A DNA stretch of 52,749 bases, from positions 1-52,749 of the forward strand of contig JACQYK010000172.1 in assembly GCA_016208255.1 (NCBI GenBank), in the 5' to 3' direction. Positions 34,054 through 52,749 of the stretch are shown piece after piece (position 1 is the stretch's first letter; each line of letters begins with the position of its first letter). The DNA is from Deltaproteobacteria bacterium (GTDB lineage Bacteria; Desulfobacterota; RBG-13-43-22). The notes under the pieces were generated by a model. That model was not told where the DNA came from. It did no database searches and saw only the letters and a list, made by a program, of their open reading frames with translations. The translations under genes were made by a program, and so were the position numbers.

Positions 34054-34154
34054 GGGAACACAAAACTGCTTGATTTTTTCTGAGTCCTATTTTATTCTCA
34101 AAAATTATTAAAACATTGGCTTAGGATTCAGGCTCGAGCTTTACATTGCGTCCG

Positions 34155-34224
34155 GCGACGTCATTCCCGCGAAAGCGGGAATCCGGATTTTTAACGCCGA
34201 ACGCCTAACGCCTGACGCCTAACG
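34155..34224. repeat. dRS3-like hairpin plus GCCTAAC array
   Basis: GTCATTCCCGCGAAAGCGGGAATCC-type hairpin (about 34160-34183) is followed by CGCCGAACGCCTAACGCCTGACGCC units (34193-34224). It lies between gltX and tRNA-Gln. Confidence 0.65.
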
Positions 34225-34238
34225 GGATTTTAAAACAT

Positions 34239-34312
34239 TGGGGGATCGTCTAACGGCAAGACTGTAGACTCTGGATCTACCTATCGGGGTTCGAATCCCT
34301 GTCCCCCAGCCA
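34239..34312 (+). tRNA. tRNA-Gln (anticodon CTG)
   Basis: A 74-nt cloverleaf with encoded CCA: acceptor TGGGGGA paired with TCCCCCA, anticodon loop CTCTGGA in a GTAGA/TCTAC stem, T arm GGGGTTCGAATCCCT. Anticodon CUG reads CAG. A T-run follows directly and may terminate transcription, though tRNA-Glu follows 100 bp later. Confidence 0.93.
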
Positions 34313-34356
34313 TTTTTTTAGATCAGCCGGATTTGAGCAGAAAGGTTCAACTTTTT

Positions 34357-34400
34357 TTAGGCTTCTGACTCCGAACTCCCAACTCTAAACTCCGAACGCC
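34357..34400. repeat. TCCGAACTC-unit array
   Basis: Units such as GACTCCGAACTCCCAACTC and AAACTCCGAACGCC lie between the two tRNAs; they belong to the family found in and upstream of rnpB. Confidence 0.6.
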
Positions 34401-34411
34401 TTTTCCTTAAG

Positions 34412-34487
34412 GGTCCCATCGTCTAGTGGCCTAGGACACCGGCCTCTCACGCCGGTAACACGGGTTCGAACCCCGTTGGGACCACCA
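34412..34487 (+). tRNA. tRNA-Glu (anticodon CTC)
   Basis: A 76-nt cloverleaf with encoded CCA: acceptor GGTCCCA paired with TGGGACC, anticodon loop CTCTCAC in a CCGGC/GCCGG stem, T arm CGGGTTCGAACCCCG. Anticodon CUC reads GAG. It forms the left border of the defence island; 34488-34638 is AT-rich and holds nothing I recognise. Confidence 0.93.
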
Positions 34488-34638: not shown

Positions 34639-35871
34639 CTACCCATCAAGTTCCATAGCCTCCTCATCTTCATCCTCATCGAAATCTGACTCTGGAGGCA
34701 GCGGCTCATTAATGTCCTTTAACGGAATATTTTGGTAATACTGTATCCATTTACCCTCTTTCTTATTCAGTCTTATTTCTTCTTCAAAATTAAACATATT
34801 AAAAAATTCCGGTGGCAGCGGCACAGAATAAGACAGACCAACGCGATCCTGGTCGATATAAGGCAAAATATCCGGACAAGGATCAGTACACATTTCCCTT
34901 ATTTCGCAAGTCCCACACTCGTTCTTAAGTTCGCTCCGGTAGATTATCCACAGTTCGCGGTTTTTCTCGATATTATATTCTCTTCCCTGGGTTAATTCAT
35001 AAGCCCGATAGAAGCGCTTTTTAACCAGATCTTCGGTCATTCTCAACATATCGGATATTCGGCTAAAGGTATTCCTGCTTGAGATCGCACCATTTCTCAG
35101 CCTAACTTTCCTTCTTAGATCCCAAATTTTTAATTGTTCCCATGCTTCTTGCCTTTGCCTGCTGTCATCAATATTCCAGTCAAATAACCGGCTTGTACTT
35201 CTAATTTGTTCTAGGCCATATTCTTCAGCCAATACCTGCTCCATAATGGGTTCCAACCTTTTCCCAACCGTAAGATATTCCTTTTCATATTCCAAAATAG
35301 ATTTAAATTCCTGCATCAATTGACCTGGGGGCTTTCTAAGGTCGATTTTTAATATTTTTTCAAACCTTTCTACATCCCCTGATATTTTTGGTTTATAATG
35401 TCGATAACCTTGTTTTCCCTCATATACATCCATTCCCGGAGCCACCCCGTATTCTTCAACTCCCGGGGAATAGAACAACAGCGGAAGCCCTTTGGCTATC
35501 AAGGGGTGTCGATCATCCAGATCTTTTCCTGGATATAAAAGCTTGAGAATTTCTGAGGTGGCCACGCACCAATATTCCTGCGCATAGGCAATAAATCTTT
35601 CAAAGAACCCAAAATCATCAGCATATCCCCCGAAGAAGGGTTTACCACTGGCATACAATCTGCCCAGTCTCGTCAGGAAATCATACCGTGATTCATCAGG
35701 TAATCGAAGTTCCGGAATTATCGTATAGGGATCCTTTGAAAGATCTTCATAGAACTCGATAAAATTAAAGTTCCGTTTGACAACAGCCAACTTTAAATTA
35801 GCCCTAGCGAAATCTTCCTCTTCAAATGTAAACCCGGAAATAACCCGTCCAGGAAGCCATTTTGTCGACAA
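34639..35871 (-). CDS. unknown protein with C-terminal Cys4 cluster
   Basis: I do not recognise this 410-residue soluble protein. It has no signal peptide or membrane segment. A Cys cluster C319-x2-C322-x5-C328-x3-C332 could bind zinc or an Fe-S centre, and the last 20 residues are strongly acidic (DFDEDEDEEAMELDG). A charged helical stretch before the cluster (about 255-300, with NTFSRISDMLRMTEDLVKKR) might bind nucleic acid. It is the last gene of the minus-strand defence island, 33 bp after the split nuclease-like gene, and probably belongs with it. The function is unknown. Confidence 0.7.
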   Translation of the reverse strand: MSTKWLPGRVISGFTFEEEDFARANLKLAVVKRNFNFIEFYEDLSKDPYTIIPELRLPDESRYDFLTRLGRLYASGKPFFGGYADDFGFFERFIAYAQEYWCVATSEILKLLYPGKDLDDRHPLIAKGLPLLFYSPGVEEYGVAPGMDVYEGKQGYRHYKPKISGDVERFEKILKIDLRKPPGQLMQEFKSILEYEKEYLTVGKRLEPIMEQVLAEEYGLEQIRSTSRLFDWNIDDSRQRQEAWEQLKIWDLRRKVRLRNGAISSRNTFSRISDMLRMTEDLVKKRFYRAYELTQGREYNIEKNRELWIIYRSELKNECGTCEIREMCTDPCPDILPYIDQDRVGLSYSVPLPPEFFNMFNFEEEIRLNKKEGKWIQYYQNIPLKDINEPLPPESDFDEDEDEEAMELDG

Positions 35872-36458: not shown

Positions 36459-36860
36459 TTAGCTGATTCGAAATGCCCCATTTTTCAAAAATCCCATAAG
36501 ATCTTTGATAACAGCAAGACTGTCTTCGTTAATCGAAGCTAAGAATTCCCGATTGTTTATGGACCGGGTTAGTGATTGGAGAAGATTAGCGGCATCCGAG
36601 TCAGTAACAATCTGATCATCGTTCGAGATATAGGACCCATCCCAGTCTTTATCCCATTCTTCGGCCCTTTTTTTTATTCTCTGCTTCTCCAAATAATTAA
36701 TGCCTTCCCCTTTCCTTGGGGATGGGGGCTCTTTAAGGTTGATGACCGTTCCCATAGGTTCCCAGCCAAATTCTCTGGCCGTATTGAGTAAAAATTTCCA
36801 GGCCGTCCAGTTGAACCAGGCCTCACGATTGTTTTTCAAACTCAAAAGATCAACGCCCAT
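36459..36860 (-). CDS. small conserved protein of unknown function
   Basis: This 133-residue protein starts MGVDLLSLKNNREAWFNWT and contains DGSYISNDDQIVTDSDAANL, a pattern I have seen in small uncharacterised bacterial proteins where the SNDGQ-like motif precedes a helical C-terminus. No catalytic motif stands out. It sits between the 214-residue unknown gene and the split nuclease gene on the same strand, spaced by 37 and 17 bp, so it is likely co-transcribed with them. Confidence 0.6.
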   Translation of the reverse strand: MGVDLLSLKNNREAWFNWTAWKFLLNTAREFGWEPMGTVINLKEPPSPRKGEGINYLEKQRIKKRAEEWDKDWDGSYISNDDQIVTDSDAANLLQSLTRSINNREFLASINEDSLAVIKDLMGFLKNGAFRIS

Positions 36861-37705: not shown

Positions 37706-39568
37706 TTATGGATTCGCCAGGCAGGCCTTTAACCGGGTTATAAACTCCGATTCCTCTACATAGGGAATGACCAGCCGGTACTTGGCCCTGGTGATGGCCA
37801 CGTAGAGAAGTCTAATCAACCGCTCCCGGGTTTCATCCCTGGGGATAATTTGATCCATGCCCACCAGGTAAACCAGATCGAAGTCCAGCCCCTTGGCGCT
37901 GTGGATGCTGATCAGGGAGACCCGGTCGGTGGTGATGTCGAAAAGTTCTTTGGCCCTGACATCCTGGGAGACCCAGTTGGCCGGGATACCGGCTGATTCC
38001 AGTTTTTTAAGAAGTTGTACGGGAATCTCTTTGCCCTGGTATTTGAAGCCTTCGGGGCTGTAGACCTTGTCATCATAGAGGATGGCTATTTCTGAACGCC
38101 GGCATTCCCCCTGTCTAATCAGGTCCGAGATTTCTTTCAGGATAAAATTCTCCAAATCCTCCTGATTCTTGAACCTAGACAGTTCAGGGGCCGGACCATG
38201 CCTGAGGTGGGCATCGGGGAAAAGGGGTTGCTGGGGATCCGGTTTGATTTCCTGGCCGATAAAACGCTGGGAAAAGGCCAGGATCTCGGCCGTGTTACGG
38301 TAGACACGGTTCAGGGTGCGGGTTTTGCCTTTGGCCTCTATCCCCAGGGATTTCCAGGAACCCTCCCGGCGGTAAAGATCCTGAAAATCATCCAGGGCAA
38401 TAACCAGATCACCTCCCGGTCGGAGGATCGGAAGGAGTATCCGGAACATGTCATCCTGAAAATCCTGGCCTTCGTCAATCATGACGGCATCAAAAGGCAT
38501 AATTTCATTCTGGCCTTTCTGCAGGGCCTCCAAGGTCAACTGTACGATGGAGTCATAATAACCCTGATCACTTTTATCGTATTCAAGGGACATCCCCAGG
38601 ATATCCGAGCAGACCTCGAAGAAATGGCGGACCTGGATGGCATCGCCGCCCACCCCCACTCCTTTTTCCAGAAGCAGCCGCTTCAGGTAACTCACCAGGG
38701 CAATGTTGTAGCAGACCAGCAGGATGCGCTTGATCCTGGGATTATATCTTTGAAGGTAACAGCAGCGGTTGACCAGGACGAGGGTCTTGCCACTGCCCGG
38801 GGGCCCCTTGATGATCTGGTGGCCGGTTTTCAGGTACAGGGCGACCCTGGCCTGGTTTTCATCCAGGGACTGGATCTCTCTTTTGAATTCCAGCTTACAG
38901 AAACCTTCCCGCTTGGGGATATGGAATTTGAGGACTGGAAAGAGGAGGGAATTGAGCCGGTAGATTTCTTTAGGGGCAAGCCCATGCAAAGGAAAGGGGA
39001 AAGCTGGGGTTATTCTATCCTGGAATTTCTTCCCGCTCGGATCACAGCGAATTTCCCCCTCGTTAGCCAGATCATCCTGCAAAAGGACCCTCTCCAAGGG
39101 AATAACTTGATCCAAATTATGTTCCAAATATTCTTCCCGGGAAATATTGGGGAAGACCGCCATCCGCCCGATGGGGACCTTTAATTGGCCTTCGTGAGGT
39201 CCTGTCTCATTTAAAAATCTAGGATGATCTTTAAGCAAATCCATGAGGTTATTGACATACCCCCTGGCCTGCCTGTCCGGATTGGTCCTGGTTTCCTCCT
39301 TCCCACCAATCCAGATCTTAAAATTCACGGAGTCAGCTTCTTCGACCTGATCAATATTCCAGTCTTTGACTTCCAGGACCAAAAGCCCATAGTGGTTACC
39401 AAAAAGCACAAAATCAGGCTCCACCCCCTGCTCCCCGATAGCCGGTTCATACCAAGAGATGAACTCCGAATCTGGCCTGGCTGCTTCCCGAAGAAACCGA
39501 AAAACTTTCCGTTCTCCCTCAGTGGGGTTCTCCAGGTCGTCAATTTCTTCAGGGTGCATAAGGGCCAT
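37706..39568 (-). CDS. NERD nuclease-like domain fused to UvrD/Rep-type helicase
   Basis: Residues 40-70 carry the NERD nuclease-like core: D52 and E66-V-K68 (PDFVLF ... VLEVKDW). From about residue 235 comes a superfamily 1 helicase: Walker A GPPGSGKT (255-262), Walker B MIDEGQDF (363-370), a motif IV-VI region with RVYRNTAEIL, SIHSAKGLDFDLVYLVG and RLLYVAITRAK at the C-terminus. Such proteins occur in phage-defence loci and could process DNA. The gene lies 96 bp after the DUF262 gene on the same strand, at the 3' end of the BREX set. Activity is inferred, not shown. Confidence 0.85.
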   Translation of the reverse strand: MALMHPEEIDDLENPTEGERKVFRFLREAARPDSEFISWYEPAIGEQGVEPDFVLFGNHYGLLVLEVKDWNIDQVEEADSVNFKIWIGGKEETRTNPDRQARGYVNNLMDLLKDHPRFLNETGPHEGQLKVPIGRMAVFPNISREEYLEHNLDQVIPLERVLLQDDLANEGEIRCDPSGKKFQDRITPAFPFPLHGLAPKEIYRLNSLLFPVLKFHIPKREGFCKLEFKREIQSLDENQARVALYLKTGHQIIKGPPGSGKTLVLVNRCCYLQRYNPRIKRILLVCYNIALVSYLKRLLLEKGVGVGGDAIQVRHFFEVCSDILGMSLEYDKSDQGYYDSIVQLTLEALQKGQNEIMPFDAVMIDEGQDFQDDMFRILLPILRPGGDLVIALDDFQDLYRREGSWKSLGIEAKGKTRTLNRVYRNTAEILAFSQRFIGQEIKPDPQQPLFPDAHLRHGPAPELSRFKNQEDLENFILKEISDLIRQGECRRSEIAILYDDKVYSPEGFKYQGKEIPVQLLKKLESAGIPANWVSQDVRAKELFDITTDRVSLISIHSAKGLDFDLVYLVGMDQIIPRDETRERLIRLLYVAITRAKYRLVIPYVEESEFITRLKACLANP

Positions 39569-39663
39569 ATTTCTATTTCATCCGTTTTGTTATTTTTTTG
39601 TTTTTATAGCCTTTGCACTTATTACTTCCTTTCAATCCTTTCCATTGGTCCAACAACGTTGAT

Positions 39664-41322
39664 CTATTCCCTGAAGATCCGAATCCCCGCTTCCTTCTCT
39701 AGGCTCTGTTTGATCAGATTCTGCCTCTCTCGAACGAACCGTCGAAAACCTTTTTTGATATCTTTCATCCACAGACCATTTTTGCTGTCAAAAGGGATAA
39801 TATGATGAGACATTTTTCTTGCAAAGAGACTTCTATTTTTTTTTGTCACTTTCAGATAATGTGATGGACGTATATTCCCGATGAGCTTATTTTCCTCTGA
39901 CGTAAGAAGACAGATGTTACATATGCTATTATACTCTGAATGTTGAAAACCAGCCCGGCTTAGCAATGCTCGGGGGAAAATATGATGGCGATCCTTGCTT
40001 ACCTGCGACAGGTATCTTTCTAATGGTATTTCATTCAGTGATTCATCCAATAAACTAACAGGTTTTTTCCTTAAAAGCAGGCAATAAAATGCGGACCCCA
40101 TGCCTGATGATGGGGAATTATATTGCGTCTTTCGGATATCATAAACATCGGCAAATTCAGATGGTTTAAATTTTGAGTCATTATTATGCGACAACTTTTT
40201 GAAAAAACTTGCATCATCTACGATGCATTTGTAAAAGGCCTTACCTGAATACCTACCCGCCGTTGTTGTTGACCAGAACCATTTGCGTATTTGGTCTTTT
40301 TGCTTCCAGTCGGGGTTATGCTTGTTATTAAAATAGTAAAAAAGTGCTAGCATTGAAATCATGTATGGTGAATAGAGATATGAAAGGTTAATTACTCGAA
40401 AATTATTTTCGAGATATATAACTGCTTTTTTAAAACATTCTTTGAGAATACTCCATTCTTTATGAATATTCTTTTTTACAGATGGGTTTTTCGTCGCCTC
40501 ATTTTCAATTTCCTTGACTACCCCATCAATCTTATTTTTCCCAGGATATGTTACTCCTCGCAATGCAATTAAAGTCCACAAGATCGGCATATCATCAATA
40601 TTTTTGTATGGTTCACCGAGCTTCTGTCTGGTTTCGTGGACAAAATCTCTTAAATCCAGCGTTTGAGCCTTTGAAAATATCGCATCTGCAGAGGATACTT
40701 TAATTCCTTGGGTATTTATGCGAAGGAAGCACTCTTTAACTTCAGCTAAGCTTGGTATGCTGGTAACTACTTGAAGTATCTTGTAATTAAAAATGCTCTC
40801 ACGGCATTTCTTTATGGTTTTCAAATGGGATTTTTTTAATCCATAGAAGTTATTTTTAAATTGTGGAGACAATATATCGTTTAGTGAAACAAATCGACCT
40901 TGCTGAGGTTTTCGATAGGAAAAACATTGTTCTTTTTTCTTACAATCAAGTGAAAAAACTATGTTTCTGAAGTTAATTTCTTTACCCTTAGAATTGGGAA
41001 TTGACATCCCTTGATAAATGCCATGGAGAACAGACAGTCGTTGTTGACCGTCAATCAAAAACCAGACCCGTTTGTTTCTGTCGTTGAAAGGAGGTAAAAC
41101 GTTATACTTCTCCCTAAAAAAAAGCTTTTTTGATGTAGGTGTATTCCATACAAGTACAGAGCCAATCGGCATTTCCTTATAGATGCTATCCATTAATTTC
41201 GCGGCCCTTGATCCATCCCATACAAATTCCCTCTGCAATCGAGGAATCGCATACTTACCTGCTGAGATATCTTTCAATACAGCAGATATTTTTTTATTTA
41301 CCGTTTGGATTTTGCTTTTCAT
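39664..41322 (-). CDS. DUF262/HNH GmrSD-like nuclease
   Basis: The N-terminal DUF262 domain (ParB-like) has YAIPRLQREFVWD (24-36) and the NTP-binding IDGQQRLSVLHG (89-100). The C-terminus carries a DUF1524-type HNH motif: KDRHHIFPRALL (443-454) and NSICNICLLTSEEN (464-478 region). This domain order is that of GmrSD/BrxU type IV restriction enzymes, which cut modified phage DNA using NTP. It lies 32 bp after brxL; a GmrSD-type enzyme next to BREX is known from the BrxU-carrying locus. All key residues appear intact (552 residues). Confidence 0.88.
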   Translation of the reverse strand: MKSKIQTVNKKISAVLKDISAGKYAIPRLQREFVWDGSRAAKLMDSIYKEMPIGSVLVWNTPTSKKLFFREKYNVLPPFNDRNKRVWFLIDGQQRLSVLHGIYQGMSIPNSKGKEINFRNIVFSLDCKKKEQCFSYRKPQQGRFVSLNDILSPQFKNNFYGLKKSHLKTIKKCRESIFNYKILQVVTSIPSLAEVKECFLRINTQGIKVSSADAIFSKAQTLDLRDFVHETRQKLGEPYKNIDDMPILWTLIALRGVTYPGKNKIDGVVKEIENEATKNPSVKKNIHKEWSILKECFKKAVIYLENNFRVINLSYLYSPYMISMLALFYYFNNKHNPDWKQKDQIRKWFWSTTTAGRYSGKAFYKCIVDDASFFKKLSHNNDSKFKPSEFADVYDIRKTQYNSPSSGMGSAFYCLLLRKKPVSLLDESLNEIPLERYLSQVSKDRHHIFPRALLSRAGFQHSEYNSICNICLLTSEENKLIGNIRPSHYLKVTKKNRSLFARKMSHHIIPFDSKNGLWMKDIKKGFRRFVRERQNLIKQSLEKEAGIRIFRE

Positions 41323-43401: not shown

Positions 43402-45762
43402 TTATTCGTCACCTCCAATTGTGGTAGCCTGCTTTGCGATTACTGAACCGGAAGAATCAATGAGCACCAGGCTGATAACGGCGCCTTTCAGTTCCTCATT
43501 TTCAATAAGCAGGCTCACTTGACCATCAGCGCTGATCATTTTAGGGGTGGCTGCGCTTGAAGTTTCATCATTTGGTTTTGTTCGGAGGTCTGCCTTTATT
43601 TTGGCTCCCCCTGAATCAATGAAAGCCCGACAACGCATACCAACCCACTGGATGCCTGTTATTTTGGCGATGGTCTGAATAGGCATATCGCTCAGGCTGA
43701 ATCGCAGATCCGGGACAAGGCATTCCTGTAAACTCACACCGCCATGGGCGTATTCATTTCCATTTGAAAAGCAATTTACCCCTGGACCAAAGGCAAAGTA
43801 TTCATGGGTATTCCAATACCAGTTAGCCATAGGAAAATTGGCCTTTGAATGATTTTTGATCGCCGCGCATCTTGCCCATCGGCATTCGGTGAGGTATTTC
43901 GGCAGCTTCACAGCAGGCAGACCACCAGGAACCAGGAGCCAGCCATGATCCGTTAACACTCTTACCCGTCTCCATCCGGCATCGAGCAGCTCACGGATTC
44001 TTTCAATTAAAAGCTCTATTTGTTCCGTGATTCTGGCTGCCAGTTTGCCTTGTAAGGTATGACCGAGCCTATCAATCTCACCGAATTCAGTCCACCCTCG
44101 GGCATCTGCTTTTTCAGGTTCACCGACATCAGATGGGCTAAGGGTCTGGTATCCTTCCGAAACGAGCAGTTTGCGGAAACGATCTATGGTTAATGGCTTG
44201 CCGTTTTCTTTTGTTTCAGGACGAAATTCATCCCCTAACTGATTCCCTTTGATTTTCTTTGCTACCGGAGAAAGAGCGGGTTTAGATGTCGCAGTAACTG
44301 TTGGGAGGGCGGCCCACCGCCAATTGGCTGACACCTTAAGCTGTCTTTCCTCTGCTAAAATGGTTAAGCGCCTTGATACATCAAATCGGAGACTGTCCGC
44401 AAATAAAAGGCAATCTCCAACCTCTGCCTCAACTCCAGCCGGTTCACTGCCGCCTGAGGCCAAGGGTGTATCTATTAACAGTTTCTGGAAATTACGCGCC
44501 GTATCCTCCAGCCAGGGCAAATAGGCGCTCCTTAAGGCCGTCTCTATTGCCTTATGATCCTCAATGGATTTGACACTTCCTATCGCTAAGATAGCGGCCA
44601 TATCTGCATAATAGCCAGTCTCCCTATAAACAGCGGCCATTGTATCTAGCGTATCACCGCCTATATTTTGGGAAGTCGCGCCAGCCATCACAGCCAAATG
44701 TTCCAAGGCTGTAGCAAGAGGGCTTTGCCCGATTTTTGCCCATACCCAATCACGGCGTTTATGATGTTTCTTTTCTAATTCTTCAATTGTTTTCCTGACC
44801 TCAGACGCGCTTTTTGAAGATAAACTCAGCAGTTCCTGCCGCAAGGCCTCTTCTTCGCTGTCGTTTTCGTCGGGCCATGGTTCCTTATCAAAGATGAGTT
44901 TTCCGGAAGGCTTGGATTTCTTAAGCACCTCCGGTAGACCCGGGTACAGCAACGGCGATTCTTCAAAACGCCTCCAGAGGTTTTTCCAGGTTTCATTTTC
45001 CCGCAGCCCGAGTTTTTCTCCGGCCACAATTGCCCCATCTTTTTCCGGATCAAAACTGTATTCAGCCTTGCAACGCGAAATGAAAGCGGCCCATTTATTG
45101 CCGTCCCACCGTTCCTGGATTTCTGATGGAGAATTCATCCATATCAATAAATCGCGCGGCGTATCTTCAATCATCAGTTTATCAAAATCTTCTGTTTCTA
45201 GACGTTTAGCTGTCAGCCTTGTGACTGGTGTCACCGCAAGGTGGGCCAATGCACCGAGCATTGACTGTCTGGTGTGTTTATCTTTTGCAACATCGAGTCC
45301 CAAGCCCCCATCCTTGGAAACCAAAAATGCCTCCACGGTCCAGTCCCTTCCATTTCGTTGCGTCCAAACCGTGCCCCTATATTGCAACTCGACAAGCGGT
45401 TTTAAGATGTCAGGGCATTCCTCGACGGCTCTCAAAATTTGCCTGCTGACATTCGGCATGTATATGACTGGGGTGACATCTTCCGGCAGATCGATATCCG
45501 GCAGAGAGCGCTCGATAACACACCTCAGCCAGATGGCCGGACCTATCTTTTTTTCCGGGTCATATTCACCTAGCGTAAACAGTTCGGGCATTAAAGGACG
45601 CAACTGATCCACCAGGGAAGCCCATTGGTTATCCGAATCGGTCCATAAAATGACCGCAGGACCGACCATGTCAGATCGGTTGTACCGCACCGCGCGAAGG
45701 AGCGAAAGTTTTACTGATTCAAGAAGTGTCGAATAAGTCTCATGTTCGGAATATTTCGTCAT
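43402..45762 (-). CDS. pglZ: BREX protein PglZ
   Basis: PglZ has an alkaline-phosphatase-superfamily core required for BREX immunity. In these 786 residues the metal and active-site signatures are: D456 in LLFADSLRFD, TVTATSKP (488-495), D564 and H568 in EIDRLGHTL, D605-H606 in LTDHGW, and HGGVSLQE (673-680). The length and spacing look like the shorter PglZ type. It overlaps the AlbA_2 gene stop by one base (TAATG), which couples the two genes, and is followed 2 nt later by brxL. Confidence 0.95.
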   Translation of the reverse strand: MTKYSEHETYSTLLESVKLSLLRAVRYNRSDMVGPAVILWTDSDNQWASLVDQLRPLMPELFTLGEYDPEKKIGPAIWLRCVIERSLPDIDLPEDVTPVIYMPNVSRQILRAVEECPDILKPLVELQYRGTVWTQRNGRDWTVEAFLVSKDGGLGLDVAKDKHTRQSMLGALAHLAVTPVTRLTAKRLETEDFDKLMIEDTPRDLLIWMNSPSEIQERWDGNKWAAFISRCKAEYSFDPEKDGAIVAGEKLGLRENETWKNLWRRFEESPLLYPGLPEVLKKSKPSGKLIFDKEPWPDENDSEEEALRQELLSLSSKSASEVRKTIEELEKKHHKRRDWVWAKIGQSPLATALEHLAVMAGATSQNIGGDTLDTMAAVYRETGYYADMAAILAIGSVKSIEDHKAIETALRSAYLPWLEDTARNFQKLLIDTPLASGGSEPAGVEAEVGDCLLFADSLRFDVSRRLTILAEERQLKVSANWRWAALPTVTATSKPALSPVAKKIKGNQLGDEFRPETKENGKPLTIDRFRKLLVSEGYQTLSPSDVGEPEKADARGWTEFGEIDRLGHTLQGKLAARITEQIELLIERIRELLDAGWRRVRVLTDHGWLLVPGGLPAVKLPKYLTECRWARCAAIKNHSKANFPMANWYWNTHEYFAFGPGVNCFSNGNEYAHGGVSLQECLVPDLRFSLSDMPIQTIAKITGIQWVGMRCRAFIDSGGAKIKADLRTKPNDETSSAATPKMISADGQVSLLIENEELKGAVISLVLIDSSGSVIAKQATTIGGDE

Positions 45763-46934
45763 TATTCAGCTTTCCTTGTCATCCGTGCCGTAAACAGGTT
45801 ACGATCATAATCCGTCTCCAATTTCAGATCCGGCACCAAAGCCAAGGCACGAAGGATACCGGTGCCGATTCCTCGATAGGGCAATTCCTTGGTTGCGAAC
45901 GAAGCGATAAGGGGATTGCGGATGACCGACACCCCGTGGCGGATATTCTCAATCGTCAGGTTATTTGGCAACGCACCGGGGCTTATCAACTCGACGCGGT
46001 CGTCAAAAATCATGATCCGCCAGGACGCTGAAATGAAATAATCACGGTGTAGAAGCATGTTGACTACGAGTTCCTCGATTGCAATGGCTGGAATTTCCAG
46101 ATCACCTTCAGTATTAAAATCCTTGTTGCCTTGTAAGCGGCGAAGATTCCGGGTGATAAATGACATGGTGCGGGTGTGCATGTCGCGCAGACAACCGCCA
46201 ATGTCCTCACTGTCCCGATATTTCAAGCCAGCCGGGTCATTACCTACGAATGAGACGGCTTTGACGACAAAGGCGGGGCGATAACGTTGCGGGTCCCGAC
46301 CGAATAGAATCAAGCCTGCGAGGTTGAGGGTCTCGTTTTTGGCAAGGCCCAAGTTGTTCAAGAGCTGGGCCATCGTCAGGCCGGAGTCTTCCAGCTCCTG
46401 TTTCACGGTTCGACCATGCTGTTTTTGAAAAAAGTCGTCGAAATGGGCATCGTCCAGTGAGTCCAGGGTTGTGCCTTCAACAGGGACTTCATCGGCATAA
46501 ACGAGACCTGCTCGTTGCATCATTCGCTGAATCTCCTCACGGGAGGTGACCGGTCGCTTATTGGCACCCGATTTCATCCAGAAAACACCCTGATTGTCTG
46601 CGTACGGCTTTGACAGGCCTTCACGAATGGTCAAAACCATGACCAACCCCTTTTCTGTACCCACATTTTCCGTGATCGGGTTGATAGGAGGTCGAACATT
46701 CTCCGATGCCACATTCGACACTAAATTATTGAGCCTGCGGATGTCATCCTGTGTGATCCCGACGATGTCGCCGTGATCATCAACACCAATCAAAATGCGC
46801 CCTCCTTCAGCATTGGCGAAGGCCACCATTTCCGCAGCCAGGGAAGTCGCGTTCCTGATGTCCTGCGCCTTTTTGAATTGCGTATGGCTATCCTCGCCGC
46901 GCGAGAGCAATTCGATGAGTTCTATTGCTTCCAT
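45762..46934 (-). CDS. Schlafen AlbA_2 / HATPase_c_4 ATP-binding protein
   Basis: This 390-residue protein has an N-terminal AlbA_2 (Schlafen-type) domain (about 12-130: THTQFK-like SHTQFKKAQ, MVAFANAEGGRILIGVDDHG, SGANKRPVTSREEI) and a C-terminal GHKL-type ATPase (HATPase_c_4) from about 270 (EELVVNMLLHRDY, ELISPGALPNNLT, RNPLIASF, GIGTGI). Such proteins are often called transcriptional regulators and frequently sit in defence loci. It overlaps trlF by 13 nt and pglZ by 1 nt, so it is coupled to both. Its role could be regulation of the BREX set or an effector/sensor with TrlF. Confidence 0.85.
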   Translation of the reverse strand: MEAIELIELLSRGEDSHTQFKKAQDIRNATSLAAEMVAFANAEGGRILIGVDDHGDIVGITQDDIRRLNNLVSNVASENVRPPINPITENVGTEKGLVMVLTIREGLSKPYADNQGVFWMKSGANKRPVTSREEIQRMMQRAGLVYADEVPVEGTTLDSLDDAHFDDFFQKQHGRTVKQELEDSGLTMAQLLNNLGLAKNETLNLAGLILFGRDPQRYRPAFVVKAVSFVGNDPAGLKYRDSEDIGGCLRDMHTRTMSFITRNLRRLQGNKDFNTEGDLEIPAIAIEELVVNMLLHRDYFISASWRIMIFDDRVELISPGALPNNLTIENIRHGVSVIRNPLIASFATKELPYRGIGTGILRALALVPDLKLETDYDRNLFTARMTRKAE

Positions 46935-49540
46935 AGCTGGTAAATCTCCTTACGTCGGGCAAATGCCTCTTGTCCGCCTTCCATTATAGAAACGATTTCT
47001 TTTTGTATCCCAGGCTCGTCAATGCTTCCGATCTGGATTGAGCCAGCTCCAGCTGTAAAGGAACATGCACCGACCTGCTCGGCGTCCCCTAAGACCGGAA
47101 AATTTGCGTTGTGGGTCGCGAAGATGAACTGGATTCCCTTCTTCAGGGTATGAATCAGCTTGATCACATCTTCGAAGATGGTCTGGTTATCCAGGTCGTC
47201 TTCCGGTTGGTCGATCACGATCAGGTCGTTGTCCCTCTGGCTCAAGATGAAGAGGATAAGGGCAGAAGCTCGCTGCCCGAGTGAATGATCTCGCAGGTCC
47301 TTGCCGTGATACATGATCCGATAAACATTCGGTACCTGCCAGGTGAGAAGCGATGCCTTGGCTTCGTTGAAGTACCGCCGAAATGCATCCCCTGAATCGC
47401 CAAGGGCGTTACAGATGGCATCCAGACCCTGATAGACGGAAATAAAGTCCGCATGCCCCTCAAGAGCCGATTCGAGGGTGGACTCCCTCAGACGACTACC
47501 CCTGAAATTGCCCTTCAGCTCCTCAAGCATGAGTGCTCTGTTGCCTTTGTACTGAGGGACAATTTGTAAAGCGGTCTGGCTTTGGTTCAGCTTCTTAACC
47601 TCCTCATCGATCTCCTTGAACTCCCGATGCCAAAGGTCATTCAGCCTTTTCAACTCTTTGAGGAGTTCAGCCTGCAAATCGTTCCTCCTTTTTCGGCTCT
47701 TTGTGGTTTCAGAGAGGGCGAGGTTCACTTTCTGAAGTTCAGCGTTGAGCTTCACAAAGTCGTCCGGTCGGACACTGACTCCACCATCTTGTTTAAGCTG
47801 CTCACTTAACCGCCGTTCGATGGCTGCAAACTCCTCTTTCAGGGCTTCTCGCCGACGTTCGAGTTCAACGAGCTTTTCCCTTAACTCACGCGAATCACTA
47901 CTCGCCTCGGTCAGGATTTGTCTAACCTTTTCGGGAACCTTGCGGATTTTCTCCAAAAGGTTGTTGATTTCTTCCATAACATCGAGGTTTTCCTTTGAAT
48001 CAAGGAGTGGAAGGGCAAAGAGTTCACTTTCCTGCTCGTTTAAGAAGACATCGAATGAACGTAAAAAGGACTCCAGGGCTTCGACAATTCGGCGGGAATT
48101 GGTAACATCGGCGTTGAACTGCACCTGTCGCTTGAGCTGCTCTTCGACACCGTGTTCCCGAAATAGCTTCAGGCGAAACTCGGTGTCTCGTTTTTTATTC
48201 TGGTACTCGGTTTCAATCGCATCGAGGTTCTTAAGCTTGTCAAGGCTTCCAAGAACATCCAGAACACGCTGTCGTTGAGAGGAGATCTCCCTTCGTACGG
48301 CATCGAGTTTAGACCCGATCAGCCGCTCAACAAGTTCATCCTCAGACCCCTCGCCACGTTTAACGAGTTCTTTCTGACCAAAAAACAGGGCATTCTTCAA
48401 CGGTATGCTGACGCCTGGTAGAAGCTCGCCATTGTGGTAGATATCCATTCGCTCATTTAGGATACGCCGGACTTCGAATAGTCGCCCTTGAGCGTCCTCA
48501 GTTTCGACAACGACCTTTCCTCCGCTCTTTAGGGAAAACCTGACAAGTTCCTGCTTGTACTTCAGGTCGGTTTCTTCGGAAGATCCCGGTAAAGGAAGTT
48601 CCAGCCCGAAACGCAGACACTCAAGGATAGCCGATTTGCCACTTCCCCGTATGCCTATAAGACAATTCATTTCGGGAGAAAATTGGAGACGTTGCCCGTC
48701 AAGGATACCACCCTCGAAACGAATAGATCGCACCCAGGAGTGGGGCTGTTTTTGAACAGGACCCAGTGAGAGACGTTCCGCACCGGGTTTCAAAGCGAAT
48801 TGTACAGCCTCGAACGTAAAGGCCCCCATTTTGATAAATGTGGTTTCGCTTCGCCCGATTTCATCCATATTCTTGGGATCCGAACCCTCGACTTCGGCGG
48901 GATACCAACTGTCGAGCCACCCTTTGATCTTCTCGCGTTTGTTGCGGGTGCGCACCTTCTGAAAACCTGCAGTACGTAAGCGAAACACTTCGTTTTTCCC
49001 GAGTTCGGTAATTCGGCCTCCATCCATACCGCCCCAAAGCCCATTATCATCTTCGACGTGCGCGAAGATGAGAAAGAAATCCTTTCCGAATTTGTCGAGT
49101 TCCCGGATCGTTTCAATAAGGTCATGGTTGGATCTAGCATTGCTGTTGTCGTATCCGGACTGCCCCGCGAACGTGAGACCAAGGAAACTGTTGATGTGGT
49201 CCGTATTTTCCTTGTTGTCAGTCCAGTTTTCTTGGAAGACGACAAGGGTATGAATGCCATTGCGCCCATCTTTTACGGACAGCTCCACACCGGGCATGAG
49301 GTAGATACTTTCTTTCCTGGCGGCTTTCCGGAGGGTTTTGAACTCCTCCCGGTCGAATTTGTTATGGTTCGTGATGACACCAACACGGATATCAGCCTGT
49401 TTGAGGGCGGTAACATACCGAGCCACGAAATCCTGATCGGACCCTGTATCATTGAACTCCTTATCCCGCCGAGTATGCAAATGGAAGTCCGCTCGAACCC
49501 AGCGGCTGCCATGTGTAAAGAAAGTTTTCTCATCAGCCAT
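46922..49540 (-). CDS. TrlF-type PHP-domain SMC-like ATPase
   Basis: The N-terminal PHP phosphoesterase-like domain (residues 15-250) has H20-L-H22 (ADFHLHTRRD), VITNHN and the conserved His/Asp sites. It is followed by an ABC/SMC ATPase split by a long coiled coil (about 420-690): Walker A GIRGSGKS (296-303), the Q-loop FGQKEL, signature LGQRASALIL (about 754), Walker B LIVIDQPEDDLD (773-784) and ATHNANFPV. The 872 residues match the TrlF AAA-like ATPase type. The PHP part may be a nuclease gated by the ATPase, as in other defence ATPases; that is an inference. It overlaps the AlbA_2 gene by 13 nt. Confidence 0.87.
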   Translation of the reverse strand: MADEKTFFTHGSRWVRADFHLHTRRDKEFNDTGSDQDFVARYVTALKQADIRVGVITNHNKFDREEFKTLRKAARKESIYLMPGVELSVKDGRNGIHTLVVFQENWTDNKENTDHINSFLGLTFAGQSGYDNSNARSNHDLIETIRELDKFGKDFFLIFAHVEDDNGLWGGMDGGRITELGKNEVFRLRTAGFQKVRTRNKREKIKGWLDSWYPAEVEGSDPKNMDEIGRSETTFIKMGAFTFEAVQFALKPGAERLSLGPVQKQPHSWVRSIRFEGGILDGQRLQFSPEMNCLIGIRGSGKSAILECLRFGLELPLPGSSEETDLKYKQELVRFSLKSGGKVVVETEDAQGRLFEVRRILNERMDIYHNGELLPGVSIPLKNALFFGQKELVKRGEGSEDELVERLIGSKLDAVRREISSQRQRVLDVLGSLDKLKNLDAIETEYQNKKRDTEFRLKLFREHGVEEQLKRQVQFNADVTNSRRIVEALESFLRSFDVFLNEQESELFALPLLDSKENLDVMEEINNLLEKIRKVPEKVRQILTEASSDSRELREKLVELERRREALKEEFAAIERRLSEQLKQDGGVSVRPDDFVKLNAELQKVNLALSETTKSRKRRNDLQAELLKELKRLNDLWHREFKEIDEEVKKLNQSQTALQIVPQYKGNRALMLEELKGNFRGSRLRESTLESALEGHADFISVYQGLDAICNALGDSGDAFRRYFNEAKASLLTWQVPNVYRIMYHGKDLRDHSLGQRASALILFILSQRDNDLIVIDQPEDDLDNQTIFEDVIKLIHTLKKGIQFIFATHNANFPVLGDAEQVGACSFTAGAGSIQIGSIDEPGIQKEIVSIMEGGQEAFARRKEIYQLWKQ

Positions 49541-49543
49541 GAT

Positions 49544-49609
49544 TTAATACCTCGCAGTCCGAATACCGTTATGGTAACCGATGGTCATTTTGTCTTTTTT
49601 CTCAGTCAT
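49544..49609 (-). CDS. possible 21-residue leader peptide
   Basis: Between the end of the pglX frame and trlF a short frame starts at ATG 49607-49609 (MTEKKDKMTIGYHNGIRTARY) and ends with TAA at 49544-49546, three nt before the trlF start codon. It could couple translation of trlF to pglX. There is no homology evidence, so it may be chance. Confidence 0.25.
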   Translation of the reverse strand: MTEKKDKMTIGYHNGIRTARY

Positions 49610-49625
49610 CACGAGGACTCATCCT

Positions 49626-50702
49626 TCATCCTTCCGCTTTCATCCTTTCGCGTGCTTGTCTTTTTTCCTCATTCGTCAAATGGACATCATTTACCCGGTC
49701 ACCTGTGAATTTGCCATCTTTCCAGAACCATGGATATTGTTCCTTTGGGCGTAACGGTTCCTTCCCCCGATCCTTTTTCCAGTCTATATTGGGCTTCCAC
49801 CGGAGAATCCCTGCTCCTTTCCTTCCACCAGGAATATCCTGAGCTAAAAAGGGGCGAATATTCAATCTAACCCCGTCATTAATATCGGGTTCCCATCCAA
49901 TAGGCTGTTCCTCTATTGGTTTCCAACGGACAAAAATATCAAAAGGCGGTTCACCCTCAATGATGGCGATGAGCCGTTTCTGAAGCTCCAAAGCTGCTGC
50001 CAGGCGGTCTTCCGATCCACCTTCGCCTCGTTTAACCCCTTCTCTTTGGCGGGTAATCCATTCACCCAGATAGCTATAGGTTAGATTTTCGAGAAGCTGC
50101 CGCCCTTTTCCATTCCCCTCGGCCAGTTTTTGATAGTTCACAAGCGCATGAAACCCGTCTCGCCTGCGGCCATCCCAGATGTGCCAAATAAAAGGTCGAT
50201 GGTAGAATAATTTACAGTGTTGCTCAAAGAAATGATCGCGTAGCCATTCATCCAGGTCTTCTCTGTTTAGCAGAATGGCAGCGGTATCCTGCCGCTGCTT
50301 TTGCAAAGGCTGGGAGCATCTGCCACTTTGATATGCCACAGATAAAAGGCTCAGCAGGCGGTCGGTAGATGGTTCCTCTCCACGTACTGAAGGGATGCAT
50401 ACGATCCCATCTTCATCGGTGTACCCAAAAAGATTATCGCATTTTTTCACCCACTCCCGCTGTTCGTCAGCAAGCTCCATGTTCGCGTCAAGCTCGGCAG
50501 GCCAACGGTAGCCGAGCAGGCGAGCCACAGCAACTTGCAGCACGGTGCCACCAGTACGCAATGTCCCGTGGATCGTCCATTTTGCATCTTCATCCCACAC
50601 CACCGAGCCACAGGGGTGGCCGTGGAAAAGCCACTGGGTCGGATCGTCCGAGTAAGGTTTGGGCAATCCGTTGGGGTAATTTTCTTGGGCGATTGTTGTC
50701 CA
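49626..50702 (-). pseudogene. pglX: C-terminal part of PglX after an in-frame TAA
   Basis: From the TAA at 50703-50705 the pglX frame continues without any shift: WTTIAQENYPNGLPKPY, then SDDPTQWLFHGHPCGSV, LLGYRWPAE, and near the end ILRWKPNIDW and DRVNDVHLTNEEKR. These are the normal C-terminal motifs of PglX/Eco57I-type BREX methyltransferases, thought to recognise the DNA target. A TTG at 50664-50666 could start it as a separate 346-residue polypeptide, but no convincing ribosome site is seen. The stop replaces one codon of an otherwise continuous gene. Confidence 0.8.
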
Positions 50703-52749
50703 TTAATCAAGGTCGAAGGGGACCTTGACAAGAGTTGCATTAGTTACTTTTAAGGCTTGATCAACTTCACGGACCTTAGTGGAGTAAAAAATAGAACTTA
50801 TGTATGTCCAGAGAGATGCTAACAAGTTCTCTTCTTGTGGCACCAGGACACCGGTACTATTGTCATAAAGATCTCCTAAGAATAGAGTAGCAGGTAGGTT
50901 TCCAATTTGTCCGACTGCAACTCCTTTTCTACCATATGCCTCGTTTTTTGTGCCGGGTCGTAGCAGCTCCGTTCCGGAGTTAGACCAATCAATTACGTTT
51001 ATCTTACCAGCATAAAAACCGGTGATATCCGGTGTGCCTTGATAGAACCTCCATTTATTATAGTCGGCTATCTCAAAGAATTTCAGTGTCCATTTCTCAT
51101 TATCTCCAGAAACTATCCCTCTCATAGATATTGAATGGTCGGAAAGACGATCGGAGAAGTATTCAGTTTCCGTCAATCGTATTACAAAATCATTAGTTTC
51201 GCTTAAGTCAGAAATTTTGATTTTAGAAAGAGGATAATTAATTAAACCTTCGGACTTTTTAACCACCGTTGATTCATGAGAGACATCTATTCCTCCATAC
51301 CAATTTCTGGTAGCGACGTCCGTTTCCAGTATCATCAATACTGCTTTTACAATTTCGCCAGAAATTGAATCGAAAGCTCCTGGTCCAAGGCGAGCGATTA
51401 ACTTTATCGTTTCATTTTTAACTATTAATTTTCTAAACTCCTTATATGACGGCTGAAACGTCCAATTCTGCGGTAAGACTATTGATATATTTCCATTTCT
51501 CCCTACAAATGACTTTAATCTTAGTAGAAAAACTGTAGCAAGGTCATGCTTTCCAATTCGATAATTCCTCTCGCTGTACTGCTTGAGGAAATTGGCTTGC
51601 TTCTTGATTGTCAAATATGGTGGATTAGTAAAAATATGACAGTACTTATTTGTCAAAATACCCGCTGCATGTGTTATTCCTCTAGCGACAACACCCATTT
51701 CAGCTTTTTCGTCATCGTTCTCTCTTGCAATTGCTTTCGTCAGCAGTGGCCCAACCTCTGCCCATTTCAGTTCAAACAGTGATCCTTTGCTAAGGCTAAC
51801 TTCCGGGTTAAAGAGGCTGCCAAGCACTGGAGCATCTTTAAATTGTTTGTAGAGTTCTTCCAAGGCCAAACGCAGGTTGGTGCTATCGCCCGCAAGTGCC
51901 AGCCACTCCTCCTTCTTGGCATTGATCGCCAATCCGGAGCAGGCCACATTTAGTTCCGGCAAAGGGCGATATCCACCTGTGCCCGGATACTTCCAAGCGG
52001 CAAGTGCAAGTGCAAAAGCGGCAAGCTCAACGCATCGCTTGTCTATTTCCAGCCCATAAAGATTTTCCCGCAAAACGGCATCACAGGCATTCCCCGCGGA
52101 AAGCCCCTCCAATTCCATACGCATAGGCACAAGCATAAGAAAAGCAGCCACAAGGAAATGCCCAGAACCACAACATGGATCGAGAGCTTTTAGTTCGCTC
52201 AATTTCTCAGGCCAACCGTCAAAGGTTCCGGCAGCAGGTGTCCAAGCCCCATTCTCCTGCTTAACAAACCTCAAATATTCCAATGGAACGCCAAGGAGGG
52301 CTATCAGGCGGCGGCAATCGCCCTCTGTCTTGCATTTTTCCCATTTTCCCTTCAGCCTTTCCTCCTTGAGTCTTTTTCCTGCCCACCATGCGCCCAACGA
52401 ATTATCGAGCAGGAAATTCACCATGTAAGGTTCTGTAAATAACTGCGTTACCGCTGGCAGTTCATCGGCGCCAATTTTACTTCCTGATGCATTTACTTCT
52501 TTTTTTCGTTTACTTTGCCAGAATTGATAAACCCATCCCAGGGAATCGCTAGCTGTAAAAATCGCGGGTTCCAGATCATTAAGCAGATTTTCCAGTTTGA
52601 TCCTATGCTCGCGAGCAAGGGAAACTTTTAAGATAGGATCATTGGGTCGGAAAATCTGAGGCAACATATGTTGGGCAAATTCACTGGCCAAAGCCCAAAG
52701 ATCCTTTCCATCTTCTTTTGCCAGCTCCTCGCATTCTTCAAGGCTGATA
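50703..52749 (-). CDS. pglX: BREX adenine DNA methyltransferase PglX, N-terminal part, cut by window edge
   Basis: PglX methylates adenine in host DNA at the BREX site, marking self and enabling phage exclusion. The frame is open to the right edge, so the true start lies outside. Visible are a helical N-terminal region with LGWVYQFWQS and TQLFTEPYMV, the SAM-binding motif I LDPCCGSGHFL, the catalytic motif IV TNPPYL and the DNA-binding part. It ends at TAA 50703-50705 after VKVPFDLD, one codon before the C-terminal part at 49626-50702. Upstream brxA/brxB/brxC would be expected beyond 52749. Confidence 0.9.
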   Translation of the reverse strand, partial: ISLEECEELAKEDGKDLWALASEFAQHMLPQIFRPNDPILKVSLAREHRIKLENLLNDLEPAIFTASDSLGWVYQFWQSKRKKEVNASGSKIGADELPAVTQLFTEPYMVNFLLDNSLGAWWAGKRLKEERLKGKWEKCKTEGDCRRLIALLGVPLEYLRFVKQENGAWTPAAGTFDGWPEKLSELKALDPCCGSGHFLVAAFLMLVPMRMELEGLSAGNACDAVLRENLYGLEIDKRCVELAAFALALAAWKYPGTGGYRPLPELNVACSGLAINAKKEEWLALAGDSTNLRLALEELYKQFKDAPVLGSLFNPEVSLSKGSLFELKWAEVGPLLTKAIARENDDEKAEMGVVARGITHAAGILTNKYCHIFTNPPYLTIKKQANFLKQYSERNYRIGKHDLATVFLLRLKSFVGRNGNISIVLPQNWTFQPSYKEFRKLIVKNETIKLIARLGPGAFDSISGEIVKAVLMILETDVATRNWYGGIDVSHESTVVKKSEGLINYPLSKIKISDLSETNDFVIRLTETEYFSDRLSDHSISMRGIVSGDNEKWTLKFFEIADYNKWRFYQGTPDITGFYAGKINVIDWSNSGTELLRPGTKNEAYGRKGVAVGQIGNLPATLFLGDLYDNSTGVLVPQEENLLASLWTYISSIFYSTKVREVDQALKVTNATLVKVPFDLD

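What the first reader, a model, noticed from the sequence alone, without database searches (positions are those of the whole stretch)
43402..52749. TrlF and AlbA_2 genes embedded inside a BREX operon between pglX and pglZ
In type 1 BREX pglX, pglZ and brxL follow one another. Here a PHP/SMC-like ATPase and a Schlafen AlbA_2 ATP-binding gene sit between pglX and pglZ, overlapping each other by 13 nt and pglZ by one nt. Tight overlaps suggest stable co-expression and maybe physical cooperation, not a chance insertion. A PHP nuclease-ATPase plus an AlbA_2 sensor could be a second defence layer, for instance an abortive response if BREX fails.
Basis: partly seen in the sequence, partly recalled or inferred. 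Interest (0 to 1): 0.72.

Follow-up and report, generated by a model that had tools for sequence, protein, structure and literature searches.

The report
Growth-arrest gene pair inside BREX operon
Between two core genes of a bacterial anti-virus operon (BREX) lie two overlapping genes, relatives of a pair that stops Photorhabdus growing in the heat; the same pair recurs inside several other kinds of DNA-restriction operon and alone, and is likely a portable backup that would shut the infected cell down when the main defence fails.

Summary
In detail: trlF (46922-49540) and an AlbA_2 gene (45762-46934) lie between pglX and pglZ, overlap by 13 nt, and a TAATG links AlbA_2 to pglZ. They are a conserved unit: AlbA_2 follows TrlF in 29 of 31 window-type loci examined, always in one relative frame. 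They are TrlF and TrlG of the Temperature Restricting Locus (Hapeshi 2020), 47%/47% identical to the pYR3 pair. In Photorhabdus that locus arrests its own cell; most sequenced escapers were changed in trlG, none in trlF. The pair is not BREX-specific: I found it in type I and other methylase-helicase operons, in BREX-related DUF499 operons and alone. The pglX-pglZ gap is a known dock (over 1 kb in 21 of 29 type-B BREX loci); TrlF/AlbA_2 sets fill it twice, from two TrlF clades. I read it as a portable growth-arrest backup; no phage test exists.

The parts
46922..49540 (-). trlF: N-terminal PHP metallohydrolase domain, then ABC/Rad50-like ATPase (872 aa)
   Evidence: NF045780 538.3 bits, cut-off 350; positions H20, H22, E86, H97, H161, D221 (PHP ligands by recall of the family) and Walker A K302/S303 the same in 120 of 120 close homologues
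45762..46934 (-). trlG-like gene: SLFN_AlbA_2 (14-129) + HATPase_c_4 GHKL-type domain (306-370), 390 aa
   Evidence: Pfam; same domain plan as published TrlG; 47% identical to the Yersinia ruckeri copy
46922..46934 (-). 13-nt overlap of the trlF stop and the trlG start
   Evidence: 16 of 29 pairs show exactly 13 nt, all 29 the same relative frame
43402..45762 (-). pglZ (BREX-1 type B); its start codon shares one base with the trlG stop (TAATG)
   Evidence: NF033450 893 bits
41354..43399 (-). brxL
   Evidence: PADLOC BrxL E 9.4e-291; TIGR02688 444.7, cut-off 329.3
49626..50666 (-). pglX, C-terminal piece after the in-frame stop
   Evidence: PADLOC PglX model PDLC02528 positions 811-1124
50703..52748 (-). 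pglX, N-terminal piece, runs off the contig end; in-frame TAA at 50703-50705
   Evidence: PADLOC PDLC02528 positions 110-797; sequence
39664..41322 (-). GmrSD-N-like gene downstream of brxL (neighbour, same strand)
   Evidence: PF03235 85 bits; G+C 36.6% against 50.0% for window 1-34000
37706..39568 (-). NERD + UvrD-like helicase (neighbour, same strand)
   Evidence: PADLOC C3a187 280.1 bits; PF08378, PF13361

Best explanation
The two genes between pglX and pglZ are the TrlF-TrlG pair of the Temperature Restricting Locus family, here docked in the accessory slot of a BREX operon, where they likely act as a backup that would stop the cell's growth when phage gets past or disables the restriction system. 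Shown by my calls: the pair's identity, order, overlap and conservation; its presence in several kinds of DNA-methylating restriction operon and alone; and TrlF/AlbA_2 sets of two different TrlF clades in the same BREX slot. Shown by others (PMC7554251): the Photorhabdus locus arrests its own cell on a temperature up-shift, most sequenced escapers carried changes in trlG (AlbA_2 + GHKL), and none were seen in trlF. Inferred: the two BREX cases are separate arrivals; TrlG is the arm that arrests the cell, by binding or cutting nucleic acid with an altered Schlafen-type site under ATP control; TrlF, a Rad50-like ATPase with a PHP nuclease domain akin to Ppl, is the sensor and gatekeeper, perhaps adding nuclease activity of its own; the trigger is failure of the neighbouring restriction complex, or the nucleotide loss and DNA ends that infection causes. 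None of these inferred steps has been tested.
For: Pairing: AlbA_2 directly follows TrlF in 29 of 31 window-type loci, all in one relative frame. Identity: 47%/47% to the Yersinia ruckeri copies, whose protein accessions are those of pYR3, the plasmid that PMC7554251 names as carrying trlF and trlG homologues; same domain positions as TrlG. Growth arrest by the homologous locus, escapers mostly in trlG and none in trlF. Docking: hsdR-trlF-albA2-hsdS-AAA-hsdM; the block is in 38 of 5426 E. coli genomes, with hsdR annotated in 30 of 30 listed records (40 in all) and hsdS in 29; 39 of the 40 are at least 99% identical, so they are near-copies. Helicase/NOV_C - TrlF - AlbA_2 with a DUF1156 methylase downstream in L014, L016, L022, L024. 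A methylase-like gene (58 bits) before and a ResIII/endonuclease gene after in L120. A methylase match within 8 kb in 17 of 31 window-type loci (no background control was run). Second BREX case L065, whose TrlF lies in another 100/100 clade. AlbA_2 type without TrlF in the same slot in L144 and, weakly, L158. ATP-site residues E288, N292, G355, G357, G359 in 119 of 119 AlbA_2 homologues. In clade L113-L116 TrlF has lost the PHP HxH ligands yet keeps its AlbA_2 partner, which fits AlbA_2 as the essential arm.
Against: I found no phage, toxicity or binding assay for this pair in the papers seen. The Photorhabdus authors read their result as TrlF having no role, or being compensated by TrlG, and they propose temperature biology, not defence. 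PHP ligand positions are the same in 120 of 120 window-type TrlF, so PHP chemistry matters here and TrlF may be the killer. The window-type AlbA_2 has Gln where Schlafen nucleases have their second catalytic Glu (116 of 119), so it may not cut. 14 of 31 window-type loci show no detected methylase within 8 kb (4 of them on stretches under 10 kb), and the Photorhabdus locus sits between polA and dsbA, so dependence on a restriction system is not general. Only 2 of 29 BREX slots hold a TrlF/AlbA_2 set; 0 of 10 genomes behind the contig loci have type-B PglZ. pglX is interrupted here, so the window's BREX may not work at all. The TrlF tree carries long-branch warnings.
Confidence: 0.5

Rival explanations
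1. TrlF is the effector. Its PHP domain is a Ppl-like DNA exonuclease freed by nucleotide loss or DNA ends, and AlbA_2 is a non-cutting partner that brings it to nucleic acid or regulates it.
For: TrlF matches the Ppl model partially (133.1 bits) and L065 TrlF strongly (608.6); Ppl is described as an NTP-gated PHP 3'-5' exonuclease (PMC12904381, passages); PHP positions 120 of 120 and Gln19 in 116 of 119 AlbA_2; TrlF without a detected AlbA_2 neighbour occurs (11 of 28 phylum loci, one of them cut by the contig end).
Against: Published growth escapers lie mostly in trlG and none in the larger trlF; clade L113-L116 lost PHP ligands but kept the pair; both window TrlF and L065 TrlF are under the Ppl cut-off of 1000.
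Confidence: 0.25
2. Ordinary defence-island clustering: an independent two-gene defence system that happens to have landed in a tolerant slot, with no functional tie to BREX.
For: 14 of 31 window-type loci show no methylase nearby; the BREX slot holds many unrelated systems: HEC-01-type ABC pairs, GmrSD, McrBC, DarT; Went et al. find genes there in ~7000 of ~9000 genomes; 0 of 10 genomes behind the contig loci have type-B PglZ.
Against: The cassette overlaps both neighbours in type I operons (4-nt overlaps with hsdR and hsdS) and pglZ here; TrlF/AlbA_2 sets of two TrlF clades are in the same slot.
Confidence: 0.2
3. PARIS-type logic proper: TrlF holds an active AlbA_2 RNase and releases it on meeting an anti-restriction protein such as Ocr. 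(This overlaps the best explanation; it differs in the active RNase and the trigger.)
For: PARIS also occurs between pglX and pglZ and related ABC pairs fill the slot; Schlafen RNases are reported in at least 1017 BREX/BR taxa.
Against: Positions 14/19 read E-Q in 15 of 15 window-type pairs aligned (D53 in 13, Asn in 2), against E-E in 10 of 10 pair members from other clades; AriA matches are weak (37.8 bits) and no Toprim family was reported in the slot.
Confidence: 0.15

Closest known systems
Temperature Restricting Locus trlR-trlF-trlG of Photorhabdus laumondii (PMC7554251: abstract, passages and Discussion part 1 seen)
   Same: TrlF and TrlG homologues in the same order; same TrlG domain plan; 47%/47% to the Yersinia ruckeri copies, whose accessions are those on pYR3, named in the paper
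   Different: No trlR here; it lies in a BREX operon, not between polA and dsbA; the paper links it to temperature and its main text does not hold the word phage (0 occurrences)
PARIS (AriA/AriB) and BrxU inside BREX (PMC11341690: passages seen)
   Same: Accessory defence genes between BREX core genes; ATPase plus partner in the case of PARIS
   Different: TrlF carries a PHP domain; AlbA_2/GHKL partner instead of Toprim; AriA match weak
Schlafen-type auxiliary effectors of BREX and BR systems (PMC12839542: abstract, sections 29 and 35 part 1, passages seen; supplements not seen)
   Same: AlbA_2/Schlafen plus minimal histidine-kinase-like domain within BREX/BR loci
   Different: No wHTH reported by Pfam; Gln at the second catalytic Glu; paired with TrlF, which that main text does not mention (TrlF, PHP: 0 occurrences)
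Ppl anti-phage protein (PMC12904381: passages seen)
   Same: PHP plus ABC-type NTPase in one chain; detectable homology (133.1 bits)
   Different: Single gene; window TrlF far below the Ppl cut-off (1000); last PHP motif GSDPK with Lys where the Ppl-like L065 has His

Membership tests
Temperature Restricting Locus (trlFG) | TrlF equivalog above curated cut-off | tested here: met
   538.3 against 350 bits
Temperature Restricting Locus (trlFG) | TrlG plan: AlbA_2 then HATPase_c_4, directly after trlF | tested here: met
   14-129 and 306-370 in 390 aa; 13-nt overlap; published TrlG 14-128 and 298-365
Temperature Restricting Locus (trlFG) | small regulator trlR upstream | tested here: not met
   pglX lies upstream with a gap of 85 nt. 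The paper finds all three genes in synteny outside Photorhabdus only in V. anguillarum and pYR3, so I file this as a trlFG pair, not as a full TRL
Temperature Restricting Locus (trlFG) | arrests growth of its own cell | not testable with these tools
   needs an experiment
Type I BREX | pglZ and brxL | tested here: met
   NF033450 893 (400); TIGR02688 444.7 (329.3); TIGR02653 622.4, just under its 628.25
Type I BREX | intact pglX | tested here: not met
   in-frame TAA at 50703-50705; pieces score 273.8 and 30.3 against the NF033452 cut-off of 500; a sequencing error cannot be excluded
Type I BREX | brxA, brxB, brxC upstream | tested here: inconclusive
   contig ends inside pglX; no BrxC over cut-off in the assembly; brxA and brxB were not searched in it
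PARIS | AriA ABC ATPase with AriB Toprim nuclease | tested here: not met
   AriA match 37.8 bits; no Toprim family reported for the genes scanned
Ppl | Ppl equivalog above cut-off | tested here: not met
   133.1 against 1000 bits
Schlafen nuclease | E-E-D catalytic triad (residues recalled; positions by alignment to SLFN14) | tested here: not met
   E14-Q19-D53; Gln19 in 116 of 119 close homologues, Glu in 2, Arg in 1
Schlafen nuclease | SLFN_AlbA_2 domain | tested here: met
   PF04326 79.5 bits, cut-off 25.3

The most novel reading that the evidence does not exclude
TrlFG is a restriction guard: one portable two-gene module that plugs into many unrelated DNA-methylating defence operons (type I R-M, BREX, BREX-related DUF499 systems), senses when their complexes fail and arrests the cell; the heat-triggered growth arrest of Photorhabdus is the same alarm going off without phage.
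Probability: 0.2. Interest if true: 0.85.

Novelty: new variant of a known kind. Interest (0 to 1): 0.58.

Why it matters
About 5000 of ~7000 filled pglX-pglZ gaps hold no named defence system (PMC11341690, passages). This names one occupant, shows that it is shared with other restriction operons, and connects it to a locus whose growth arrest had no settled purpose. That makes two questions, what backs up BREX and what the Temperature Restricting Locus is for, testable with one cassette in laboratory E. coli.

Tried and rejected
AlphaFold2 models of both proteins from 24-25 close sequences were poor (pLDDT 57.6 and 60.7), so I ran no fold search. PDB sequence searches gave no TrlF relative and, with profiles, only distant ABC/Rad50 and Schlafen hits. 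AlbA_2 was not found in viral contigs; TrlF relatives occur in 7 of 50,697 phage records, 2 covering at least 80% of the query. Promoter and terminator scans of the operon were at chance level. Chimeric contig: judged unlikely, a protein from the other end is 80% and 74% identical to two same-genus genomes. 'AlbA_2 is dead, so TrlF must be the toxin' was my working view until the Photorhabdus genetics; it is now a rival. Reciprocal loss (PHP lost where AlbA_2 is E-E-D; Gln where PHP is kept) rests on one clade each way and is not a statistical test; L065, L106 and L108 keep both. Rows dropped: L119 (identical to L016); L129-L131 (TrlF under the cut-off); L068 (PglZ under the cut-off); L026x and L016x (AlbA_2/GHKL genes that are not the partner of TrlF) from the triad count. 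Literature: BREX with TrlF, 0 papers; TrlF alone, 38 papers, 15 listed, one relevant by its title; AlbA_2 with PHP, restriction, defense and ATPase, 0; Spaf_1101/PHP/ABC ATPase/Schlafen/phage, 0 with four of five terms; Krishnan 2020 on ABC ATPases was not held. So 'not in print' holds only for those searches of open-access PMC text, supplements excluded.
Full report
Observation. Curated models agree. The trlF and AlbA_2 genes overlap by 13 nt and the AlbA_2 stop shares a base with the pglZ start (TAATG). The window is one whole contig. Of the 120 listed homologues of the first piece, 113 are at least 1000 aa long. It is a nonsense change, an assembly error or a split gene; reads would tell. 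No BrxC over the cut-off is in the assembly, so the upstream half of the operon is not seen.

The pair is a unit. A scan of genome contigs with a TrlF alignment gave 17 loci from records named Latescibacterota, Verrucomicrobia, Planctomycetaceae, Dehalococcoidia, Caldisericales and others; AlbA_2 follows directly in 15 of 17, and none has a window-like PglZ, PglX or BrxL in the stretch held. Putting these 17 with the window, 7 plasmid-collection loci that I chose out of 1141 matching records and 6 further window-type loci from a phylum survey, AlbA_2 follows in 29 of 31 (not in L025 and L030). 16 pairs overlap by exactly 13 nt, and all 29 offsets keep one relative frame. In the phylum survey (395 genomes, family NF045780) 28 TrlF loci in 26 genomes pass the cut-off; 17 of the 28, window included, have an AlbA_2-type neighbour, 11 have none detected, one of these because the contig ends.

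Where it sits. On IncC and IncA plasmids the order is hsdR-trlF-albA2-hsdS-AAA-hsdM, with 4-nt overlaps into hsdR and hsdS in the IncC case. The same block is in 38 of 5426 complete E. coli genomes (40 records, 39 of them at least 99% identical); hsdR is annotated in all 30 listed records and hsdS in 29. A Vibrio plasmid has hsdM-hsdS-trlF-albA2-hsdR. L014, L016, L022 and L024 have an SNF2-type helicase with NOV_C upstream and a DUF1156 methylase downstream (and DUF499 in L016 and L024), the plan that Rakesh and Krishnan call Type-1 BR. L017 and L118 follow a PLD-type helicase and an Eco57I methylase. L120 has a methylase-like gene (58 bits) before and a ResIII/endonuclease gene after. A methylase reference matches within 8 kb in 17 of 31 window-type loci; in the other 14 none was detected, 4 of these being stretches under 10 kb. 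I ran no background control for methylases near random genes, and the 31 loci are not a random sample. Pseudomonas and Yersinia ruckeri plasmids carry the pair alone among mobile and other genes. None of the 10 genomes behind the contig loci that I asked has a type-B PglZ.

The BREX slot. I collected 34 loci with PglZ type B: 12 from the window's phylum including the window, 8 plasmid-collection records, 3 and 11 from two further phyla. pglX is visible in 29. The gap to pglZ is under 400 nt in 7, 736 nt in 1 and over 1 kb in 21. Contents of the 21: TrlF with AlbA_2 in 2 (window, L065), AlbA_2 type without TrlF in 2 (L144, and L158 with a weak match), HEC-01A-type ABC ATPase in 5, GmrSD 2, McrBC 2, DarT 2, other or unassigned 6. 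In L150 a TrlF lies 49 nt after brxL. Went et al. report genes between pglX and pglZ in ~7000 of ~9000 genomes, ~5000 without a named system. L065 carries AlbA_2 - small ORF - TrlF - AlbA_2; its TrlF (623.5 bits to NF045780, 608.6 to Ppl with cut-off 1000) falls in a 100/100 clade with L105, L106 and L108, away from the window's 100/100 clade. Two separate arrivals are the simple reading; the tree comes with long-branch warnings.

Residues. In 120 of 120 close TrlF the positions H20, H22, E86, H97, H161 and D221 are kept (PHP ligands by recall of the family); K223 stands where L065, L106 and L108 have His. AlbA_2 has E14 in 119 of 119, D53 in 114 and, at position 19, Gln in 116 of 119. A profile match to SLFN14 sets E14 and Q19 against the two Glu of its ESTHVEFK stretch; that these are catalytic is recalled. 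Among the pair members aligned, 15 of 15 window-type read E-Q at 14/19 (D53 in 13, Asn in 2) and 10 of 10 from other clades read E-E (D53 in 9). In L113-L116 TrlF has lost the HxH ligands while AlbA_2 is E-E-D. The GHKL ATP-site residues are kept in 119 of 119.

The link that changes the reading. TrlF takes its name from the Temperature Restricting Locus of Photorhabdus laumondii (my inference from the shared name). Hapeshi et al. 2020 (abstract, passages and Discussion part 1 seen) found that this operon, induced on temperature up-shift, arrests growth; most sequenced escapers carried changes in trlG, an AlbA_2 + HATPase_c_4 protein, two carried changes in other genes, and none were seen in the larger trlF. 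The authors conclude that TrlF has no role or is compensated. They name pYR3 of Y. ruckeri as carrying homologues. I fetched pYR3: by order and size the 79-aa gene, TrlF and AlbA_2 are there, the last two with a 22-nt overlap. A sister plasmid with the same TrlF and AlbA_2 accessions was compared: 47% identity to the window in both proteins. I did not have the Photorhabdus sequences themselves. The word phage does not occur in that paper's main text, and the main text on BREX auxiliaries does not mention TrlF or PHP. I found no text joining the two.

How it most likely works. A module that arrests its own cell in one species, is read in overlapping frames, and is fitted into several unrelated restriction operons is best read as a backup arrest system. 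The published genetics put the arrest arm in TrlG; TrlF, an ATPase with a PHP domain related to Ppl (reviewed as an NTP-gated exonuclease), would sense and gate, and may cut DNA itself. The trigger, the target and the dependence on BREX are inferred. The main doubts are the Gln in the Schlafen site, the strict PHP conservation, the standalone copies and the interrupted pglX in this genome.

Verdict. Observation confirmed; interpretation partly supported. A known pair (trlFG) in a known kind of place (BREX accessory slot), with a connection that I did not find in print and that can be tested.

Noticed in passing
window 50703-50705: In-frame TAA splits pglX into two open frames that match consecutive parts of one PglX model; 113 of 120 listed homologues of the first piece are full-length size.
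   Followed up: partly
window 37706-41322: GmrSD-N-like gene (G+C 36.6%) and NERD/UvrD helicase (PADLOC C3a187) follow brxL on the same strand; the low G+C suggests a separate arrival of the GmrSD-like gene.
   Followed up: no
window 32638-34484: The defence stretch lies beyond a glutamyl/glutaminyl-tRNA synthetase gene and two tRNA genes (34239-34309, 34412-34484); ORFs 34639-35871 and 36459-36860 have no Pfam match, so no integrase was recognised there.
   Followed up: partly
L113, L114, L115, L116: A TrlF clade that has lost the PHP HxH ligands but keeps an AlbA_2 neighbour with E-E-D.
   Followed up: partly
L065:9829-15635: BREX slot with two AlbA_2 genes on either side of a Ppl-like TrlF and a 102-aa ORF.
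   Followed up: partly
L150:191-2869: TrlF related to the PHP-less clade (phmmer 524 bits) 49 nt after brxL, with GmrSD in the pglX-pglZ slot.
   Followed up: no
L133:8222-9955: 577-aa ORF before pglZ whose C-terminal part resembles TrlF (40% over 114 aa); no PHP part was reported.
   Followed up: no
E. coli genomes records: 55 places in 40 records: some E. coli records carry two copies of the trlF-albA2 block.
   Followed up: no
L028:10001-12609 and L118:10514-11695: TrlF (L028) and AlbA_2 (L118) each fall in two open frames, so these copies look broken.
   Followed up: no
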